Below are positions 1 to 14,607 of a DNA stretch of 40,619 bases, one piece after another. Each line of letters begins with the position of its first letter. Within the stretch, counting starts at the first letter, position 1. The notes below the pieces were generated by a model. That model did no database searches and was not told the origin of the DNA. It worked only from the letters and a program-made list of their open reading frames with translations. Source of the stretch: Nitrosospira sp. GTDB taxonomy: Bacteria; Pseudomonadota; Gammaproteobacteria; Burkholderiales; Nitrosomonadaceae. Made by a program: the position numbers and the translations under genes. The stretch spans positions 1 to 40,619 of the forward strand of contig JACDSH010000053.1 in NCBI GenBank assembly GCA_013450215.1. Reading direction: 5' to 3'.

Positions 1-3000
1 CCAGTACCGTGTCTTCCTCCTCATGCAACCGCCCTGCAGCCATGGCTGCCGCCTTGAGGAAGAGATCTCGTCTCATGACATCGCCATCCAGTGTGATAAG
101 ATCTATCGACTCGTTACGTCCATGGCGCCTTCTCCCACGCCTAACGATCACAAATCTTGGTTCGGTTTGGATTTGATGATGACCATGCTCGAGCACGACG
201 AAATGAGGGTCAAGACCTTGACGTTGGCTGAAGGCAGCGCGCAACTCATCGACCGGGGGTGTTGTATCACGACCCGCATCAATGACGACTAGCCACTGAC
301 CCAAAGGGAGAGTATCAATCCGCCCACGGGCTTGCTCAAAATCCGACAAACGTTCAACCGATGCACCACCATACTTAAGATAAGTGGCCAGGTCATCCGC
401 TAGACCCTCGTCACTTCCCATCACTAGGCAGGACAATCCCTTCAGATCATAAGACTTGTTGGTTACGATCGTCTGAACTAGAGAGGGCATGAAGGGCAGT
501 CTCACGGTAAAGGTGGACCCCACCCCGAGCGAACTTTGCACATCGATCTTTCCACCCATCAGCTCGGTTAGATAGTGAGAGATAACCAGTCCTAATCCAC
601 TGCCACCAAAACGTCGTGTGGTCGAAGCATCTCCCTGGGTGAATGACGAAAAAATTTTCCCCAGAGTCTCTTCATTCATGCCGATTCCATTGTCGGTGAT
701 ACGAAACTCCACCACCAATTCACTCGACCCAATCTCTGACAGCAACACACGCACAGATACTCGACTCCTGCGCGACTGCCCACTTGAAAACTTGATTGCA
801 TTATTGATTAGATTGATCAGTACCTGTCTCAGCTTTAGTGCGTCTCCCAAAACCTCCTCAGGAATTTCTGGGTCGATGAAGAGGAGTAACTCGACTTCAT
901 TCCTTACTGCCAGACTCTCTAACGTACCGCAAGCCTTCTCCATCACATCCATGACCGACATCGGCTCGCGCTCAATCTCAAACTTGTCGGCCTCGATCTT
1001 AGAAAAATCAAGAATATCGTCAATGATATCGAGCAGCGCGAAAGCCGATTCACGGATGAGGTCCAGCATCTCCCTTTGGTTACCGGTGAGGCTACTCTGC
1101 TGCAGCACATCTGCCATGCCGATCACCCCATTCATCGGGGTTCTAATCTCATGACTCATTGCAGCAAGGAATGTTGACTTGGCTCGGTTGGCCTGCTCCG
1201 CCTCTAGGCGCGCCTGATCTAGATCCTTCATGATATTGATCCGATCACTGATATCAACGCCTGAAGGGATCATCTTGATCACTAGTCCACTGGTGTCATG
1301 GACCGGTACCAGCATGAAATCGATAGTCATAAGATCACCACCGATCATGCGAACGTCCAGATCATGTCGTACGATCTGTCCCTGTAAGGCTCGCTCGATA
1401 TCATCTCGTATCTGTGTTTGAACTTCGAGTGAATGTGAGAACCACCAAGTCTCCTCGAGCCTCTTGCCGATCACGTCCTGGCTCTGCAACCCCCCCACCT
1501 CAAGCGCAGTACGGTTGATCTCTACCAACAACCCATCTGGCGTCATCTCGCCGACAAAGGCGGCCATATTATCCACAATGGCCCGTAATCGTTGCTCGCT
1601 TGCGCGCAATGCTTGCTCCACCTGTTTACGTTCTCGGATGTCACGCATCAGACCGGTGAAGTAACGTTTACCGCCCACATAGTATTCGCTGACTGCTAGG
1701 TACAGAGCGATGGGCTCACCATTCTTGTGAACCCCCTCAACCTCACGACCAATTCCCACACCATGCGAGCCCGACACATACTCCTGACCCTGCCCTGTCA
1801 GTCGGTATCTCACCATATAACTTTCATGCTTACTGCTATGAGGCTCGGACATCAGCATACCGACATCCTGCCCAATCACTTCATCTCGGTTATATCCGAA
1901 GAGCTTTTCCATAACTGGGTTAGTGGAGAGGATGATTCCATTCTCATCGACTGTGACAACACAGTCCTCCATATGCTCAACCACCGATCGGGTCTCCTCC
2001 TCCTTGCTGATTAGAATTGAATTAGCCTGCTGCAGGTCTTCAGTCCGTTCTGCTACCCTACATTCCAATTCTTGGTTAAGCTTTCGAAGATTATTCTCAG
2101 CCGATTCACGCTCGCGGTTACTTTCACTCAATCGCTCTGTCATTGCATTGAAACTACGCGCCAACTGTCCGATCTCATCCAAACCTTGAACCGGTACACG
2201 GTGCTGCAGGCTCCCTGCAGCAATCTCCCGTGCACTAAGGCTCAGTGTCTTTAAGGTATTGACCATACGACGACTAAATAGTGTAGCTCCCAGAATCGCG
2301 GCAAGAAGTGTCATACCCAGAATCAACAGGCTGAGTGTTCGCATCCGGTAAACAGGAGCGAATACCTCGTCCGCATCCATCTTGACTTCCATTCCCCATC
2401 CCATGCGAGGCAGATACCGCCATGCCGCAACCACCTCCTTATTACGGTAATCAACCGTGAGTCCAGCCCCGCGTTCTCCATGAAGGCTGCTCCAGATCGC
2501 TGCAGACAGAGGTATCTTCAGTTTCAGAGCAGCATTCGGCTGATCCTTCAAGGGGGCCATCACTAGGGCTGTATTATCACTTTCGAGACGAGTGACTACA
2601 GTCTCACCGGTGGCACCTAGACCTACATTATCTGTTAACACTTGAAACACCTGCTCGCTATAGATTTGCAATGCCAACACACCTTCAATCTTCCCCTCGA
2701 TCACGATTGGAAATGCCATGAAAGCAGCGATGGCACCAGCTGATGGAGCATAATACTCAAAGTCAGAGACGCCACTTTGTAGCATATTCAGTGCCTGCCG
2801 AGTGACGATGCCGAGCCCGCTATTGCGATAAGGGCCGCTAATTAAGTTGGTAGCAAAATCAGCTTCATGAGCATGTGAATAGACCACCGTACCCTGTGGA
2901 GAAATTAAAAACAGATCGTAATAACCAGCATCCTCAACAAACCTCTCGAAGTGATCTCGGTAGCTCACATCCAATTGGCGATAAGCATCACTCGCTACTC

Positions 3001-3271
3001 CGTTCTGGTGAAATGCCAGAGTAAAGTCACGCATGGCTGCGCGTGTTGTACTGGCGGTATTTATCACTCGGGTATCGAGAAGCCGTTCACGCAGGTAACC
3101 ATCGATCTGCTCGACTTTTTTATCTGCGATGGCAGAAACCTGCTGAATCGCTGTTTTCTGTAGTTCAGTCTCAAAGACGCGAAGAAGACCGTATCCTGCC
3201 AGCATAATTGGCAGCAGCGAGACCACTGCAAACCAAACCATGAAACGTTGTGTGAGTGAGGTGAACTTCAT
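1..3271 (-). CDS. Hybrid sensor histidine kinase (3' end outside window)
   Basis: Membrane sensor kinase, open in one frame from an ATG at 3271 to base 1 (about 1090 codons, C-terminus missing). Visible in order: a membrane segment near residues 8-28; a periplasmic region to about 305 that looks like a dCache-type sensor; a second membrane segment near 309-333; HAMP (about 334-388); a short coiled coil; two PAS domains (about 425-530 and 550-680); HisKA with the H-box AMSHEIRTPMNG, phospho-acceptor His707; HATPase with an N-box (LINLINNAIKF), DNGIGM and GGSGLGL; then a receiver-like domain that has lost the paired acidic residues. The start overlaps the stop of the upstream binding-protein gene in ATGA, so the two are probably translationally coupled. 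A functional receiver and perhaps an Hpt domain are expected beyond base 1, but that is inference. The signal sensed is not evident. Confidence 0.93.
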   Translation of the reverse strand, partial: MKFTSLTQRFMVWFAVVSLLPIMLAGYGLLRVFETELQKTAIQQVSAIADKKVEQIDGYLRERLLDTRVINTASTTRAAMRDFTLAFHQNGVASDAYRQLDVSYRDHFERFVEDAGYYDLFLISPQGTVVYSHAHEADFATNLISGPYRNSGLGIVTRQALNMLQSGVSDFEYYAPSAGAIAAFMAFPIVIEGKIEGVLALQIYSEQVFQVLTDNVGLGATGETVVTRLESDNTALVMAPLKDQPNAALKLKIPLSAAIWSSLHGERGAGLTVDYRNKEVVAAWRYLPRMGWGMEVKMDADEVFAPVYRMRTLSLLILGMTLLAAILGATLFSRRMVNTLKTLSLSAREIAAGSLQHRVPVQGLDEIGQLARSFNAMTERLSESNRERESAENNLRKLNQELECRVAERTEDLQQANSILISKEEETRSVVEHMEDCVVTVDENGIILSTNPVMEKLFGYNRDEVIGQDVGMLMSEPHSSKHESYMVRYRLTGQGQEYVSGSHGVGIGREVEGVHKNGEPIALYLAVSEYYVGGKRYFTGLMRDIRERKQVEQALRASEQRLRAIVDNMAAFVGEMTPDGLLVEINRTALEVGGLQSQDVIGKRLEETWWFSHSLEVQTQIRDDIERALQGQIVRHDLDVRMIGGDLMTIDFMLVPVHDTSGLVIKMIPSGVDISDRINIMKDLDQARLEAEQANRAKSTFLAAMSHEIRTPMNGVIGMADVLQQSSLTGNQREMLDLIRESAFALLDIIDDILDFSKIEADKFEIEREPMSVMDVMEKACGTLESLAVRNEVELLLFIDPEIPEEVLGDALKLRQVLINLINNAIKFSSGQSRRSRVSVRVLLSEIGSSELVVEFRITDNGIGMNEETLGKIFSSFTQGDASTTRRFGGSGLGLVISHYLTELMGGKIDVQSSLGVGSTFTVRLPFMPSLVQTIVTNKSYDLKGLSCLVMGSDEGLADDLATYLKYGGASVERLSDFEQARGRIDTLPLGQWLVVIDAGRDTTPPVDELRAAFSQRQGLDPHFVVLEHGHHQIQTEPRFVIVRRGRRRHGRNESIDLITLDGDVMRRDLFLKAAAMAAGRLHEEEDTVL

Positions 3272-4524
3272 AACCCCGTTCCCTCAATCGCTTTTATTAA
3301 GTGCCCCCAGTCCTCTCTAGTACGGTATGTGGGAAAGGGGGAAGGCTCAAATGGGCGACCAGAATCCCAAACGATGTCGAACTGTCCATCGGCGCGCGCC
3401 TTACCAATCCGAGCGACTCTCCACAAGTGGCGAGTCGCTGAGTCGAGTGAAACCACACCCTCCGGTGCGAGCAGACTCTGTCGCAGGATCGTACGCTTTA
3501 CCTGGCTTGGTTCGGCTGAACCAGCCTCATGTGCCGCCTGAACCCAAAGCTGCAGGCTGATGTAGGAGGCCTCCATCGGGTCATCAACTACCATTTTCTG
3601 GCCGTAGCGATTATGAAACCTTTGTAAGAAGGCCTGATTCTGGGGTGTCTGAATGCTCTGAAAATAATTCCAGGCGGCATAGTGACCCTCCATCCGCACT
3701 GTATCCTTACCTGCTAGGTCTACCTCTGCAATGCTAAACGACAGCACCGGTGTCTTTTCCGGTGTGATTCCGACTCTATTCAACTCACGAAAGAAGGCGA
3801 CCGCACTATCACTCTCGAGAGTATTCAGGATCATACCCGGTCGTTTTTGGAGGATATCAGCGACCAGTTCGACCACCTCACTTGATCCTAAGGGGATGTA
3901 GCGTTCTCCCACCACCGTCGCTCCCTGTGCCGCCAGCAAGTCCTTAATGAGAAGGTTGGTGACTCGTGGGAAAATATAATCTGACCCAACTAGGTAAACA
4001 TGCTTATTAGATTTATCGCGCTTGTCGAGTGTCTCTAATGCCCAATGTACCACCGGTGCGACCTGCTGATTCGGTGTGGCGCCGGTGTAAATGATATTGG
4101 GTGATTGCTCCATCCCTTCATACTGCACCGAGTAAAAGAGCAACCCCTGATGCCTCTCAACTACAGGCTTAACCGCTTGGCGGCAGGCTGATGTCCAGCA
4201 ACCGAAGAGCGCCTTTACCTTAGCTTCAGTGATGAGATACTCTGCCTGTTGGCCGCAATATAGAGGTTCAGAGCGACAGTCAACGATCACTGGTTCGATC
4301 TTTTGGCCATTGATGCCACCTGTGGCATTTGCCTCTTCGATCGCTAGCTGCAGTGCATCTACTAGCGGCTTTTCTCTGGTCGCCATGGGGCCGGTTAAGG
4401 AGTGCAGTATTCCGACTTTAATACTCGGGACACTAGACGAGTAATACTGCCACGCCATGAAAATGGAAATCAACAGAACAACCATCAACACTAGCATCGC
4501 GCTAACTCTGTTGTTGGCCTTCAT
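3268..4524 (-). CDS. Urea/short-amide-type periplasmic binding protein (UrtA/FmdD/AmiC-like)
   Basis: A 418-residue type I periplasmic binding protein (Peripla_BP_5 class). A hydrophobic N-terminal stretch (about residues 9-25) exports it, possibly as an uncleaved anchor because no lipobox cysteine is present. IKVGILHSLTGPMA (about 35-48) and FGCWTSACRQAVKP (107-120) are hallmarks of the UrtA/FmdD/AmiC branch, which binds urea and short amides in ABC importers or acts as an amide sensor. No permease or ATPase gene is adjacent; instead the stop overlaps the start of a hybrid sensor kinase by 4 bp. I infer a ligand-sensing partner of that kinase. GGAAG seven bases before the ATG is a good ribosome site. 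The ligand is not certain. Confidence 0.88.
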   Translation of the reverse strand: MKANNRVSAMLVLMVVLLISIFMAWQYYSSSVPSIKVGILHSLTGPMATREKPLVDALQLAIEEANATGGINGQKIEPVIVDCRSEPLYCGQQAEYLITEAKVKALFGCWTSACRQAVKPVVERHQGLLFYSVQYEGMEQSPNIIYTGATPNQQVAPVVHWALETLDKRDKSNKHVYLVGSDYIFPRVTNLLIKDLLAAQGATVVGERYIPLGSSEVVELVADILQKRPGMILNTLESDSAVAFFRELNRVGITPEKTPVLSFSIAEVDLAGKDTVRMEGHYAAWNYFQSIQTPQNQAFLQRFHNRYGQKMVVDDPMEASYISLQLWVQAAHEAGSAEPSQVKRTILRQSLLAPEGVVSLDSATRHLWRVARIGKARADGQFDIVWDSGRPFEPSPFPTYRTREDWGHLIKAIEGTGL

Positions 4525-4711
4525 GACTTAGCTTCCATTGGGTTCAGGTCACTGATAGAGGTGATTTGGATAACAGCTCTTTCATCATAGACTACATGAT
4601 CATGTTTCAGAACAAATCGCTACGCACTATCCACATCAAGCACACTTAAGCTAGAAGCTGATGCAAAGCCCCACTCAGTATGTAGCTTTAATCCATCTAC
4701 TCCGCGAGTGG
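4525..4711. other. Intergenic region upstream of the binding-protein/kinase pair
   Basis: Non-coding stretch of 187 bases between the end of the OYE gene and the start of the binding-protein gene. It contains a perfect 12-bp palindrome at 4594-4605 and no convincing terminator. A promoter for the sensor pair would be expected here, but I could not identify a strong -35/-10 pair. Confidence 0.5.
4594..4605. promoter_or_regulatory. 12-bp perfect palindrome ACATGATCATGT
   Basis: ACATGATCATGT is its own reverse complement and lies 70-81 bases upstream of the binding-protein start codon. The position suits an operator. Twelve-base palindromes also occur by chance, so this is only a candidate. Confidence 0.25.
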
Positions 4712-5803
4712 TCAGTTCGTATTAAGACTAGGATAGTCGGTGTAACCCTTGGCATCACCACCATAGAAGGTTGAAGGATCTGGTTTATTAAGATTTGCAC
4801 CCTGAGAGAAACGCATGGGTAGATCAGGATTGGCAATAAATAGTACACCGAATGCCACCATATCGGTCTCATTCCTGCTAATCGAAGCATTGGCTCGTAC
4901 GAGGTCGTAGCCACTATTCGTGATGTATATCCCCTTCCAGATACGCTTCAGATTGACCAGATCAAATGCCGGGCCTGCAGCATTGGGTGCCTCCTTCCCC
5001 ATTTCAGTTACATGCAGATAAGAAAGACCGAACCGGTTGAGTTGTTCCACAGCATAACTGAATGTCACTTCAGGATTAGAATCAAACATATCGTTAAAAG
5101 GCTGTAGCGGTGACAAACGAATCGCCACACGACTCGCCCCCCAAACCGAACAAACCGCATCAGTCACCTCAAGCATCAATCGCATCCGGTTCTCGACAGA
5201 GCCCCCATAGATATCGCTCCGATGATTACTCCCATCACGAAGAAACTGATCAAGCAGATACCCATTAGCACCATGAATTTCCACCCCATCAAAACCCGCG
5301 GAGAGTGCATTCTCAGCACCGGTACGATAGTCTTCAATGATGTCCGTGATCTCTGCAAGATCGAGCTCACGTGGAGTTACAAAATCTTTCAATCCTTGAT
5401 ATGTGACGGCCTGCCCCGCAGGTTTAATTGCGGAGGGTGCCACTGGCAAATACTCATCAGGCTGGAGTGAAGGGTGCGAGATGCGGCCCACATGCCATAA
5501 CTGCAGGAAGATTCTCCCACCTTTAGAATGCACCGCATCGGTGATCTGTCTCCACCCCTCCACCTGCTCCTGACTATGAATTCCAGGAGTTGAAGGATAG
5601 CCCACTCCTTGGGGAGATATCTGTGATGCCTCAGAGACTATTAAACCAGCACTGGCTCGTTGAGTGTAGTACTCCACATTGAGCGGTTGAGGAACATTCC
5701 CCTTCCCAGCACGGTTACGAGTGAGTGGTGCGAGCATCATTCTGTTCGGCAGAGAGTATGGGCCGAGCTGGATGGGGGATAAGACAGTAATCTCATTCTT
5801 CAT
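4712..5803 (-). CDS. Old yellow enzyme family alkene reductase (NemA-like)
   Basis: FMN-dependent ene-reductase of 363 residues that uses NAD(P)H to reduce activated C=C bonds or nitro/nitrate esters; cytosolic. The TIM barrel begins LGPYSLPNRMMLAPLTRNRA, typical of NemA/OPDA-reductase enzymes. The substrate-binding pair His177/Asn180 and the proton-donor Tyr182 lie in HGANGYLLDQFLRD, followed by the family signature YGGSVENRMR. Length matches the family. AGAGGAAAG lies just before the ATG. It is downstream of, and codirectional with, the cysteine-rich secreted protein and the arsC/kef genes. The physiological substrate cannot be read from sequence; a role in electrophile or oxidative defence next to the kef-type antiporter is an inference. 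No NemR-like regulator is adjacent. Confidence 0.93.
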   Translation of the reverse strand: MKNEITVLSPIQLGPYSLPNRMMLAPLTRNRAGKGNVPQPLNVEYYTQRASAGLIVSEASQISPQGVGYPSTPGIHSQEQVEGWRQITDAVHSKGGRIFLQLWHVGRISHPSLQPDEYLPVAPSAIKPAGQAVTYQGLKDFVTPRELDLAEITDIIEDYRTGAENALSAGFDGVEIHGANGYLLDQFLRDGSNHRSDIYGGSVENRMRLMLEVTDAVCSVWGASRVAIRLSPLQPFNDMFDSNPEVTFSYAVEQLNRFGLSYLHVTEMGKEAPNAAGPAFDLVNLKRIWKGIYITNSGYDLVRANASISRNETDMVAFGVLFIANPDLPMRFSQGANLNKPDPSTFYGGDAKGYTDYPSLNTN

Positions 5804-11504: not shown

Positions 11505-12962
11505 CTAGATTACAAACATATCGACAAACTCATTGACCGGTGTTTCTTCGAGTCTCTTCTGGTTAAGAAACAGATCGATGATTGCTTTTTGCTGCTTGAC
11601 TGGAAAACGGCGCGCAAGATTGGTTCTGAACTTATCTTCCAATAAGGGTATCCCCTCCTTACGACGACGGCTGTGACCAATCGGATACTCAACCACCAAC
11701 TCCGGTAATTTCTCACCACCCTTGAATTCTACTGTGACAGCATTAGCAATGGCACGTTTTTCAGGGTCATGGTAATCCTTAGTAAATTGAGAGTCTTCAA
11801 GGCAAATAATCTTTCCCCTCAGATTATCAATCCGTTCGTCTCTGGCAACATCATCTAAATAATCAGCCGCCGTCAGTCTCCCAAAAATCAACGCTACCGC
11901 AACCATGTACTGCATGCAATGATCGCGGTCGGCATAATTATTAAGGGGTCCATGTTTATCAATGATACGGACCGCTGCCGCATGAGTACGGACCGTGATT
12001 TTTTCTATATCGGCGATTCGCTCTCTAACAATGGGGTGCAATTGCATTGCGCATTCGACCGCTGTTTGGGCATGAAACTCGGCCGGGAAGGAGATTTTAA
12101 ATAGTATGTTCTCCATGACGTACGTACCCCACCGCTCGACTGGTCGTTGGAACTGGAGTGATCTGCCTCTGAATAGCGCATCGTAGAACCCCCAGTTTTT
12201 TGTTGTGAGCACGGAGGGATAGCCCATCTCCCCCTTGAGTGTTATCAGCGCTAGCCATACCGCTCGACTGGTTGCATCACCCGCCGCCCAAGATTTACGA
12301 GAACCGGTATTGGGTGCATGACGATAGGTACGGAGTGCCTGTCCGTCTACCCATGCTTGTGAAAGTGCCGCGACGATTTGATCATGACTACCACCGAGCA
12401 GATGAGTTACCACTGCGGTCGATGCGACCTTCACCAACAGCACATGATCAAGCCCAACACGGTTAAAGCTATTCTCCAGTGCTAAACAGCCCTGAATCTC
12501 GTGTGCCTTAATCATTGCTGTCAGTACTTCCCGCATTAATAATGGCTCTCTATCGACATAGCCAGCCGCGATATTGCGGGCCAACCAGTCCGCCGTAGCA
12601 AGGATGCCACCCAGATTATCGGAGGGGTGCCCCCACTCTGCGGCCAACCAGGTATCGTTGAAATCCAACCAACGTATCATTGCACCAATATTAAACGCGG
12701 CCTGCACCGGATCAAGCTGGAATCTCGTACCCGGAACTTTTGCCCCATTCGGAACGATGGTGCCAGGGATGATGGGGCCGAGTAATCGAGTACATTCCGG
12801 ATAGGAGAGCGCCTCCAGCCCGCAACCGAGGGTATCCATTAAGCAGTGCCGAGCAGTCTCATAGGCCAATCCGCTCTGAATGCTGCGATTGATCACATAG
12901 TCCGCGATATCGACCAGTACTTGATCAGGCTGTGAACGAGTATTAGGGGTCTGGAGTGTCAT
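11505..12962 (-). CDS. prpD: 2-methylcitrate dehydratase
   Basis: MmgE/PrpD-family enzyme of 485 residues from the chosen start; it dehydrates 2-methylcitrate to 2-methyl-cis-aconitate in propionyl-CoA breakdown. Similarity to E. coli PrpD as I recall it is high throughout: [15 protein letters not shown] near the N-terminus, [60 protein letters not shown], and the C-terminus [11 protein letters not shown]. The frame stays open upstream to an ATG at 13112, which would add 50 residues (including MQFAIGVGG) absent from the family, so I prefer the ATG at 12962, although no strong ribosome site precedes it. It lies upstream of acnA on the same strand. prpB, prpC and prpR are not in the window. Confidence 0.95.
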
Positions 12963-13191
12963 ATAGAAACGGCAAATCTGATCGAGGCGGTAATGCGGCT
13001 CGATATTGCACTCAATCCTGATGCACCACAAGCGGTGTGCCGACGAAGTCTCAATATTAGCTACAAGATCCAGCAGACTCGACATCCCCCCTACGCCTAT
13101 GGCAAACTGCATCCATTCGATGAGTATCAGATGTCGTCACTGCTTTAGGATCATAGCCTGATCCAAAATTAAATTGAAAGGAATCGTCTGA

Positions 13192-14607
13192 ATGAGATCT
13201 AAGGAGAGGCAGGATACGCATGGAGTCTATTTAATTCTGTTGGTTCTGGTTCTAGGTCTTGCTGCCTGTGACGGAGAGAAGAAAGACGCGGGTGGAGATG
13301 CGGCTAAAACAACAAGCAAATCGCAATCCAGTTCAAGTATGCCCTCATCCACACCCACTACCGGAATATTGATGGATGCAGCGGTCTCTGGTGTGTCCTA
13401 TCTGGCGTCTTCCGGTGCTGCTGGCAATACTGATGAAAAGGGATTCTACAAATATAACCATGGCGATACAGTCGAATTCAAGCTCGGCAGTCTAGTTATA
13501 GGCAAGGTCAAGGGTGCTCCTATTGTAACGCCCATGGAGCTAGCTGAAGACAACACAATCCGACTTCAAAACCTACTAATTTTATTGCAGTCTCTGGACT
13601 CTGATAACAATCCAGAAAATGGCATTTCCATTCCGGCCAATGCCGCATCTGCTGTCAGTGCTGCCATAAATTTAGATAGCGATCCTGCTACATTCTCAAC
13701 ATCTGCTGAGCTACAGAAGGTGAGAGAGGCCGGTGGCATTGCCGGTCCGGTCAGAAGTCTCGCTCAGGCCAAGGCACACTTTCTCTCGCAAGGCATGGCG
13801 ATGCTTAGTACCAATATCTGGTTTAGACAGGAAGGTTCAACAGCCTTTGTATTACGAGCTTTACCATCGGGAGAGTATTTGCAAGGTGAGGCTATAACCG
13901 ATGACTTCTGTGATGCCAATCGGATATGTGGTGGCACCAAGGCCAGCACAGCCGGGGTTGAGTATGGTACAGCGACCCTTTCAGAGTTTGATAACCGAGG
14001 CTTCAAGATCGCTGTCAAGCCGACGGTTGATACTAATATTAAGGCCGGGCTGTCCCATCCACAGCCGACTTGGCGTATCCGTACCGACGGTTCAGACTTG
14101 ATTTCAACAGAGATTCTAACGGTACAACGAGAGAGGAAGCAGCACAGTGTCTTCAGTGAAGTATTTCATGCTGGAACGCGAGGTGGGACGCTGGCTGTAA
14201 CGGATAAAAAAGAGCCCCTAAAGACCCGGGTAGAGGAGATCCGTTACTCCAAAATGGAGAATGACCCAAGGGGTATCGTTGGGGCCTGGTCGGTGGACCC
14301 ATATTTGATAAAAACACCCACCTATTTATTCTTTACCAACGGGAAATTTTTGATGGTTGATCCGATCGGCGATTTAGACCGTGATAGCCATAAGAGCTGC
14401 GGTGACCCAGGTGTCGAATACGCCAACTACACTTATGATGCCAGTAGCAAGAATTTTAGTGTTAAAGGATTCACTTATGACACAAATGGCTGCTCTGGAT
14501 TTTCTGAAAACAATGCAGTCTCATTTAGTATCAGTGCGGATGGCAATACAGCAACGGTAAATACACAAAATAAGACTACATTTAACGTTCACCGAGTTTC
14601 AAAGTAG
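13192..14607 (+). CDS. Lipoprotein with a widespread adhesin-like N-terminal module
   Basis: A 471-residue exported lipoprotein. The signal peptide ends in the lipobox LGLAAC with Cys26 as the acylated residue; the +2 Asp (CDG) would, by the E. coli Lol rule, keep it in the inner membrane. A Ser/Thr/Lys-rich linker follows to about residue 56. Residues about 60-150 (VSGVSYLASSGAAGNTDEKG, then YKYNHGDTVEFKLG and LLILLQSLDSDNNPENGISI) follow a pattern I know from many uncharacterised proteobacterial surface lipoproteins. The C-terminal part (about 350-471, starting GIVGAWSVDPYLI) looks like a small beta-rich domain. AAAGGAA sits six bases before the ATG. It is transcribed away from prpD and is alone in its unit. 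Function unknown; a surface or adhesion role is only a guess. Confidence 0.85.
   Translation: MRSKERQDTHGVYLILLVLVLGLAACDGEKKDAGGDAAKTTSKSQSSSSMPSSTPTTGILMDAAVSGVSYLASSGAAGNTDEKGFYKYNHGDTVEFKLGSLVIGKVKGAPIVTPMELAEDNTIRLQNLLILLQSLDSDNNPENGISIPANAASAVSAAINLDSDPATFSTSAELQKVREAGGIAGPVRSLAQAKAHFLSQGMAMLSTNIWFRQEGSTAFVLRALPSGEYLQGEAITDDFCDANRICGGTKASTAGVEYGTATLSEFDNRGFKIAVKPTVDTNIKAGLSHPQPTWRIRTDGSDLISTEILTVQRERKQHSVFSEVFHAGTRGGTLAVTDKKEPLKTRVEEIRYSKMENDPRGIVGAWSVDPYLIKTPTYLFFTNGKFLMVDPIGDLDRDSHKSCGDPGVEYANYTYDASSKNFSVKGFTYDTNGCSGFSENNAVSFSISADGNTATVNTQNKTTFNVHRVSK

What the first reader, a model, noticed from the sequence alone, without database searches (positions are those of the whole stretch)
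1..4524. Urea/amide-type binding protein coupled to a hybrid sensor kinase, with no transporter
A UrtA/FmdD/AmiC-like binding protein (FGCWTSACRQAVKP motif) has its stop codon overlapping the start of a two-PAS hybrid kinase with its own large periplasmic domain. No permease or ATPase genes flank it. This suggests a binding-protein-assisted sensor, comparable to LuxP-LuxQ or TorT-TorS, but built from a urea/amide-binding family. A nitrogen- or amide-sensing circuit is inferred.
Basis: partly seen in the sequence, partly recalled or inferred. Interest (0 to 1): 0.6.

Follow-up and report, generated by a model that had tools for sequence, protein, structure and literature searches.

The report
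Membrane-tethered urea-type binding protein sensor pair
A small ammonia-oxidising bacterium carries a urea-transporter-type binding protein that looks tethered to the membrane and whose gene overlaps that of a sensor kinase, making it part of a family of such proteins that appears to be used for sensing rather than for uptake.

Summary
The 418-aa binding protein (SBP; 3268-4524, -) overlaps by four bases a kinase gene (2-3271, -) that the contig end cuts. No urea permease lies nearby or scores over cut-off in the 99.8%-complete genome. The pair occurs at 18 of 18 orthologous loci examined. In an 81-row tree, 40 signalling-linked SBPs form one side of a 100/100 branch, apart from 35 transporter-labelled ones. 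Their partner is a dCache protein in 39 of 40 cases, with kinase or GGDEF/EAL outputs, and their N-terminal helix is unusually hydrophobic. I read this as a sensing branch of the UrtA family: a membrane-tethered co-receptor for a dCache kinase. The ligand inference needs correction. All eight conserved urea-contact residues are kept in 82 of 82 other SBPs tallied, but in only 2 of 18 from ammonia oxidisers; the window has Asn246->Glu. Its genome lacks urease and both urea transporter types sought, but has a carboxylase operon behind a guanidine riboswitch. In a sister genus 10 of 10 genomes keep the kinase without the SBP. Contact, ligand and output are unshown. SBP-coupled kinases are a known kind: new variant.

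The parts
3268..4524 (-). UrtA-like solute-binding protein, 418 aa
   Evidence: ORF; Peripla_BP_5 E 2.7e-148; TIGR03407 UrtA 444.9 bits, below its 492.75 cut-off; AF2 pLDDT 91.3, best PDB match urea-binding protein 8tg1
4432..4518 (-). N-terminal helix (residues 3-31), predicted membrane anchor ending close to the binding domain
   Evidence: AF2 helix 3-31, first strand from 35; 15-residue hydropathy 3.09, no lipobox, no AxA by simple rules
4123..4125 (-). Codon of Gln134 (= UrtA Gln144, urea contact, kept here; Arg in 8 of 10 g2 orthologues)
3814..3816 (-). Codon of Glu237, which replaces the urea-contact Asn246 of UrtA
3268..3271 (-). ATGA overlap of SBP stop and kinase start
   Evidence: sequence
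2..3271 (-). Histidine kinase, N-terminal 1090 aa (cut by the contig end)
   Evidence: full-length orthologue L035 adds REC and Hpt
2393..3163 (-). Periplasmic double-Cache domain (dCache_1, residues 37-293)
   Evidence: Pfam 48 bits vs cut-off 45; AF2 pLDDT 91.7, dCache structures found by Foldseek
2126..2281 (-). HAMP domain
1637..1996 (-). First PAS domain
1241..1573 (-). Second PAS domain (PAS_4)
989..1183 (-). HisKA domain with the SHEIRTP motif at residue 706
491..847 (-). HATPase_c domain; NLINNA, DNGIG and GSGLG motifs present
2..420 (-). Receiver-like stretch at the contig end, degenerate (boundaries and call by eye)
   Evidence: no Pfam hit here; in L035 the receiver found by Pfam follows at residues 1118-1229

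Best explanation
This is a two-gene receptor of a sensing branch of the UrtA family. The binding protein keeps an N-terminal membrane helix that looks uncleaved, so it sits on the outer face of the inner membrane beside its kinase. A small urea-like compound closes its two lobes; the closed (or open) form contacts the kinase's dCache domain and changes the phosphorelay His -> Asp (REC) -> His (Hpt) -> an unlinked response regulator. Shown by computation: gene overlap, conserved pairing, a one-clade phylogeny of signalling SBPs, the tether signature, kinase motifs, purifying selection. Inferred: physical contact, direction of control, output (c-di-GMP turnover is the best guess, from relatives). 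The ancestral ligand is probably urea; in this ammonia-oxidiser lineage the pocket has changed, so its present ligand may be urea, guanidinium or another small nitrogen compound.
For: Pair at 18 of 18 orthologous loci. Of 80 named loci, 21 have the SBP within 400 nt before a dCache or kinase-like protein, 6 have it fused to a kinase, 47 have UrtB/C, 6 other. 40 signalling-linked SBPs lie on one side of a 100/100 branch; three labels need only 2 changes, as few in 0 of 200 shuffles. The dCache partner is retained (39 of 40) while outputs change: kinase, GGDEF/EAL, or both. Window vs G050: SBP 64%, dCache 61%, kinase core 43% identical. Distance correlation SBP-dCache 0.89, SBP-kinase core 0.77 (26 loci). 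N-terminal hydropathy 3.00 and 2.70 in two signalling groups of 20 vs 1.89 in 54 transporter-labelled SBPs, p 1.4e-15. SBP dN/dS 0.04-0.17 in the 13 of 14 pairs with finite dS. No UrtB over cut-off in 29 of 29 g1-g3 genomes. All eight conserved urea residues in 22 of 22 other coupled SBPs.
Against: In genus g3, 10 of 10 genomes keep the orthologous kinase (54-66% identity) with no SBP beside it, so the kinase can persist without it. Of 30 dCache loci fetched from a class-wide search, 6 have an SBP beside them, the window's own included. In the thinned set of 10 loci the SBP-dCache correlation is weak (0.34; 36 of 500 shuffles as high). PMC11113362 (abstract and passages read) found no interaction or activation for SBPs near two P. 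aeruginosa kinases: neighbourhood is not proof. Hydropathy p-value and correlations are not corrected for relatedness. The window kinase is incomplete.
Confidence: 0.75

Rival explanations
1. The kinase senses directly through its dCache domain; the overlapping SBP is a relic or an optional modulator that is being lost in ammonia oxidisers.
For: Kinase without SBP in 10 of 10 g3 genomes; only 2 of 18 Nitrosomonadaceae SBPs keep all eight urea-contact residues against 82 of 82 in the other three groups tallied; dCache domains often bind ligands themselves (established knowledge).
Against: SBP present in 7 of 9 g1 genomes (the two without are 51% and 80% complete) and 10 of 10 g2 genomes, under purifying selection (dN/dS 0.04-0.17), with a hydrophobic N-terminal helix in every one of them.
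Confidence: 0.15
2. Orphan transport SBP: it serves a urea or amino-acid ABC transporter encoded elsewhere, and its place beside the kinase is incidental.
For: The genome has a LivKHMGF-type operon on contig C24, and the SBP belongs to the urea-transport SBP superfamily.
Against: That operon has its own SBP (L033:13375-14649); no UrtB over cut-off; the tree puts the SBP among signalling-linked ones; hydrophobic anchor; gene overlap.
Confidence: 0.05
3. Ligand-switched sensor (a variant of the best explanation, not exclusive of it): the pair works as proposed, but in ammonia oxidisers the SBP now binds something other than urea (guanidinium in the Glu/Asp branch; an anion or nothing in the Arg branch).
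For: Asn246->Glu in 5 and ->Asp in 2 of 7 g1 SBPs; Gln144->Arg with Ser/Gly/Ala at 246 in 8 of 10 g2 SBPs and in named L069. The window genome has no urease, UT or UrtB over cut-off, but a TIGR02712 carboxylase and an amino-acid permease behind a guanidine-I riboswitch.
Against: Asp/Glu can still accept a urea NH2 hydrogen bond; two g2 SBPs (G033, G035) keep the full urea set; carboxyguanidine deiminase (PF09347) is missing from 8 of 9 g1 genomes, the window's among them; g2 has guanidine genes too but an Arg pocket; no docking or assay was possible.
Confidence: 0.3

Closest known systems
UrtA (urea ABC transporter SBP; PDB 8hic, 7s6e, 7s6f; 8tg1 urea-binding protein)
   Same: Fold (Foldseek ranks 1-6, 40-43% identity) and seven of the eight conserved urea-contact residues.
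   Different: Below the TIGR03407 cut-off; no UrtB; anchor looks uncleaved; Asn246->Glu; separate side of the tree.
SBP-activated sensor kinases (BctC-BctE, XylFII-LytS, TorT-TorS, LuxP-LuxQ)
   Same: SBP gene next to a kinase with a periplasmic domain; PMC9602780 (passages read) calls SBP activation of receptors general and widespread and describes BctC-BctE.
   Different: Here the SBP is a Peripla_BP_5/UrtA-type protein with its own hydrophobic helix, and the same SBP-dCache input is joined to kinases or c-di-GMP enzymes in different lineages. Interaction is untested. Whether XylFII is also membrane-anchored was not checked (paper not held).
AmiC-AmiR amidase regulator (PDB 1pea, 1qnl, 1qo0)
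   Same: A UrtA-related SBP used for regulation rather than uptake (Foldseek ranks 7-10, 33% identity).
   Different: AmiC is cytosolic and binds an antitermination protein (recalled; the title of O'Hara 1999 was seen in the reference list of PMC9602780). The window SBP has a hydrophobic N-terminal helix and a kinase partner.
Dechloromonas aromatica urtA region (PMC2907700, passages read)
   Same: Its published table lists a 1131-aa histidine kinase and a CheY-like receiver just before 'UrtA', ahead of cynS and apart from UrtBCDE; possibly the same kind of pair, described there as urea transport.
   Different: UrtBCDE and urease lie in the same region; the SBP was not compared here.
dCache receptors (Mlp24, PctA, DctB, DvhD periplasmic domain)
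   Same: The kinase's periplasmic domain has this fold (best by E-value 9rc2 DvhD, TM 0.54 by query length).
   Different: 10-16% identity in the 50 rows shown; here a partner SBP gene precedes it.

Membership tests
UrtA (TIGR03407) | Score over the curated cut-off | tested here: not met
   444.9 vs 492.75 bits
UrtA (TIGR03407) | Encoded with UrtBCDE | tested here: not met
   No UrtB over cut-off in the genome; none beside the pair in the loci shown
UrtA (TIGR03407) | Eight strictly conserved urea-pocket residues | tested here: not met
   Seven of eight; Asn246 is Glu237
UrtA (TIGR03407) | Cleavable or lipoprotein signal peptide | tested here: not met
   No lipobox or AxA by simple motif rules; no signal-peptide predictor was available, so this is weak
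SBP-coupled sensor kinase | Conserved SBP-kinase gene pair without transporter genes | tested here: met
   18 of 18 orthologous loci
SBP-coupled sensor kinase | Kinase with periplasmic sensor domain and catalytic motifs | tested here: met
SBP-coupled sensor kinase | Ligand-dependent contact of SBP and sensor domain | not testable with these tools
   Single-chain prediction only; correlated distances are indirect
Amide-type (FmdD-like) SBP | Pocket with an aromatic residue at 144 and Val at 246, as in UrtB-linked L062 and L064 | tested here: not met
   Window has Gln and Glu there; the name FmdD for that group is recalled
dCache_1 | Pfam gathering score | tested here: met
   48 vs 45 bits
Hybrid histidine kinase | Receiver and Hpt after the kinase core | tested here: inconclusive
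   Beyond the contig end; present in orthologue L035
AmiC regulator | No export signal; partner AmiR | tested here: not met
   Hydrophobic helix present, next gene is a kinase

The most novel reading that the evidence does not exclude
UrtA-type proteins form an old, widespread sensing family: membrane-tethered urea receptors plugged by way of one dCache module into kinases or c-di-GMP enzymes. In ammonia-oxidising bacteria this receptor has switched ligand, for example to guanidinium, in step with genomes that lack urease but keep a guanidine-riboswitch operon. A sister genus has discarded the binding protein and kept the kinase.
Probability: 0.2. Interest if true: 0.72.

Novelty: new variant of a known kind. 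Interest (0 to 1): 0.52.

Why it matters
Urea and related organic nitrogen compounds are alternative substrates for many nitrifiers, yet the ten literature searches made here (capped listings, open-licence papers only) listed no sensor kinase for them. A defined clade of UrtA-type proteins that sense rather than transport would correct routine 'urea ABC transporter substrate-binding protein' naming, give candidate urea receptors in Pseudomonadota, Verrucomicrobiota and Planctomycetota, and let the ligand change in ammonia oxidisers be tested with one purified protein.

Tried and rejected
Transport role: rejected. Plasmid or phage origin: 1606 plasmid records match, all under 60% identity, and the annotated ones among the 20 listed are urtA or urea ABC transporter SBP; phages give one weak partial hit. 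Amide-type pocket: rejected. Decaying SBP gene: not supported by dN/dS, though two of the 13 usable pairs have dS above 2.5 and many kinase comparisons are saturated. The promoter scan of 3000-4900 found none (1.7 expected in shuffles): uninformative. A full guanidine pathway in the window genome was looked for and is incomplete. The second guanidine-carboxylase signature aspartate was not verified: by simple counting Asp702 falls at model position 701, but model position 956 falls on Leu957, three residues from Asp954 (signature from passages of PMC11410670).

Rows dropped or labelled by judgement. Further UrtA-like matches, among them those in loci L054, L056, L065 and L066 where my gene picker kept no SBP ORF, were not used. 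L057 counts as transporter-labelled by kinship only: its contig is 4.5 kb and its genome had no UrtB match. L058_5 lies in the same cluster as UrtB but not next to it. The first tree left out 14 rows and the second 20 more, for length, redundancy or unclear context. The named loci were the best 80 of a capped list found with two patterns that already contain the residues equal to Trp120, Tyr141, Gln/Arg144 and Glu146, so conservation there is partly selected; Asn246, Ser122, Tyr190 and Ser274 are not in the patterns.

Literature: the ten searches named above listed no paper on a UrtA-type SBP coupled to a kinase, nor on a bacterial urea-sensing kinase; several listings were capped (for example 20 of 199, 15 of 249). 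Passages found by term search were read of PMC10392092, PMC2907700, PMC11113362, PMC9602780, PMC11410670, PMC12625717 and PMC8846402; other papers were seen as search listings only.
Full report
What is in the window. The window is an entire 40,619-base contig (G000:C13) of a 1.61-Mb, 99.82%-complete genome. On the minus strand, a 418-aa protein (3268-4524) ends in a TGA that overlaps the ATG of a kinase gene (2-3271) by the four bases ATGA. The kinase runs off the contig. The binding protein is Peripla_BP_5 (E 2.7e-148); the kinase shows dCache_1, HAMP, two PAS, HisKA and HATPase_c. The full-length orthologue L035 (1364 aa) adds a receiver and an Hpt domain. The motifs SHEIRTP, NLINNA, DNGIG and GSGLG are present.

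What organism. The genome has a hydroxylamine-oxidoreductase-type multihaem protein (PF13447, E 5.9e-150). Some relatives of the same genus (g1) carry amoC pieces, although none was found in G000. The nearest named loci are Nitrosovibrio and Nitrosospira (61% and 60%), and the Nitrosovibrio one falls inside the g2 rows of the tree.

No transporter. The genome holds two BPD_transp_2 permeases, both in one LivKHMGF-type operon with its own SBP. UrtB scores over cut-off in 0 of 9 g1, 0 of 10 g2 and 0 of 10 g3 genomes, against 5 of 8 g4 genomes. Within the window the gene before the SBP is an Old-Yellow-Enzyme-type flavoprotein. Past the kinase, L035 has CcmH and CycH-type genes and L038 similar proteins; other g1 loci were judged by ORF layout only.

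The pair is conserved. SBP orthologues (56% identity or more) occur in 7 of 9 g1 genomes, 10 of 10 g2 genomes and G050; at all 18 loci the dCache kinase follows on the same strand (window, and 17 loci). The two g1 genomes without it are 51% and 80% complete. Two g1 genomes also hold a second, more distant pair (47-48%; G001:C17 and G006:C93) followed by a dCache kinase and a REC-HD-GYP protein (Pfam for G001; G006 by sequence likeness).

A signalling clade. From 80 named loci context was sorted by BLAST: 21 of 80 have the SBP within 400 nt before a dCache or kinase-like protein, 6 are fused to a kinase (all cyanobacteria), 47 precede UrtB/C, 6 are other. With local loci added, a 101-row tree puts 40 signalling-linked and 2 unlabelled rows on one side of a branch. 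In a careful 81-row tree, 40 signalling-linked SBPs lie on one side of a 100/100 branch with none of the 35 transporter-labelled SBPs among them, and the 6 fused kinases form a second group (in one search it sits among transporter SBPs). One of the 40 (L084) has a neighbour with kinase but no dCache similarity; one of the 35 (L057) is labelled by kinship only. The 80 loci were the best of a capped list found with patterns from the pair, so the proportions are not a census.

One input, several outputs. The dCache partner is homologous across these loci while the output varies: kinase, GGDEF/EAL (Gallionella, Rhodocyclaceae) or kinase plus EAL. Window against G050 gives 64% for the SBP, 61% for dCache and 43% for the kinase core. 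Distance correlations over 26 loci are 0.89 (SBP-dCache), 0.77 (SBP-kinase core) and 0.78 (dCache-kinase core); over all 44 pairs SBP-dCache is 0.65; over 10 thinned loci the three are 0.34, -0.03 and 0.23, the first reached by 36 of 500 shuffles. Relatedness inflates the larger sets. Against the pairing, a class-wide search with the dCache domain (369 genomes, 58 with a match) gave 30 loci of which 6, the window's own included, have the SBP beside them.

Tether. The best 15-residue hydropathy before the binding domain averages 3.00 in 20 local pair SBPs, 2.70 in 20 other coupled SBPs and 1.89 in 54 transporter-labelled SBPs (p 1.4e-15, not corrected for relatedness); 33 of the 40 coupled ones show neither lipobox nor AxA against 10 of 54. 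These are simple motif rules. The AF2 model of the window SBP has one helix from residue 3 to 31 and the first strand from 35 (mean pLDDT 91.3). The six fused cyanobacterial proteins have no hydrophobic start and look cytosolic.

Pocket. Nine residues line urea in Prochlorococcus UrtA, eight of them reported as strictly conserved (PMC10392092, passages). All eight are present in 22 of 22 other coupled, 6 of 6 fused and 54 of 54 transporter-labelled SBPs, but in only 2 of 18 Nitrosomonadaceae orthologues (7 of g1, 10 of g2 and named L069). In g1 Gln144 is kept and Asn246 is Glu (5 of 7, the window among them) or Asp (2 of 7). In g2, 8 of 10 have Gln144->Arg with Ser, Gly or Ala at 246; G033 and G035 keep Gln and Asn. 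Acidic residues at 246 could still accept a hydrogen bond from urea; Arg at 144 is hard to reconcile with it (inference). The gene is under purifying selection (dN/dS 0.04-0.17 in 13 of 14 pairs; the 14th saturated), so loss of function is not the simple answer. Seven divergent paralogues, some UrtB-linked, have other pockets and were left out of these counts.

Urea and guanidine genes. Urease: 1 of 9 g1, 9 of 10 g2, 8 of 10 g3 genomes. UT: 1 of 9, 9 of 10, 8 of 10. The window genome has neither. It has a full-length TIGR02712 'urea carboxylase' (1916 bits, cut-off 1304) and an amino-acid permease behind a guanidine-I riboswitch (92.3 bits, gathering 63) on contig C31. Carboxyguanidine deiminase (PF09347) is absent from 8 of 9 g1 genomes, the window's among them, so a full guanidine route is not shown. 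[quoted passage not shown]

The sister genus. In g3, 10 of 10 genomes have the orthologous kinase (54-66% identity to the window's dCache). tblastn (E up to 1) found no SBP remnant in the about 1.5 kb fetched on each side of the ten dCache matches (one locus, L209, is shorter). The SBP search found no match in nine of the ten genomes and in G010 only a 26% hit elsewhere. A small Cys-rich gene of the window also lies near the kinase in G010 (51% over 78 residues), which supports a shared locus.

Outputs. In g2 an EAL gene follows the kinase on the same strand within two ORFs in 10 of 10 loci (REC-EAL by Pfam in L042). In the window the downstream side is missing. c-di-GMP control is thus a guess for the window.

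Verdict. A membrane-tethered UrtA-type co-receptor of a dCache kinase, from a sensing branch of the family, is the best reading (0.75). SBP-coupled kinases are a known kind (PMC9602780, passages); PMC11113362 (abstract and passages) warns that adjacency can mislead. The urea assignment is good for the wider clade and open for this lineage.

Noticed in passing
L220:5751-11060 (G000:C31): Guanidine-I riboswitch followed by an amino-acid permease and a TIGR02712 carboxylase in the window's genome, although carboxyguanidine deiminase (PF09347) is missing.
   Followed up: partly
L150, L208-L211, L213-L217 (genus g3): The orthologous dCache kinase stands without the binding protein in 10 of 10 genomes.
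   Followed up: yes
L037:527-8869 and L041:1133-12130 (G001:C17, G006:C93): Second SBP-dCache kinase locus with an intact urea pocket, next to REC-HD-GYP and further kinases.
   Followed up: partly
L089, L092, L094, L095, L096, L101: Cyanobacterial proteins with a UrtA-type domain fused to a histidine kinase and no hydrophobic start: possible cytosolic urea-sensing kinases, pocket intact.
   Followed up: no
L035, L036, L038-L040, L042-L049, L052, L069, L070: A histone-deacetylase-family gene lies just upstream of the pair on the same strand in g1 and g2 relatives, but not in the window or its closest relative L034.
   Followed up: no
window:5853-6257 (-): Small Cys-rich secreted-looking protein (CSGCICLGDPCRLC) that also lies near the kinase in G010 of genus g3.
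   Followed up: no
L058:6203-7459 and 12812-14068 (G032): Two urtA-like copies with the same score in one urea-transport cluster of genus g4, on both sides of the permease gene.
   Followed up: no
L084: Contig labelled Thaumarchaeota with an SBP-kinase pair of the bacterial signalling clade: horizontal transfer or wrong binning.
   Followed up: no
L127: Paenibacillus protein with a UrtA-type domain followed by a chemoreceptor-like tail, judged by eye.
   Followed up: no
G000: No amoC found in a 99.8%-complete genome that has the HAO-type protein; some relatives have amoC pieces at contig ends, so assembly loss is likely.
   Followed up: no
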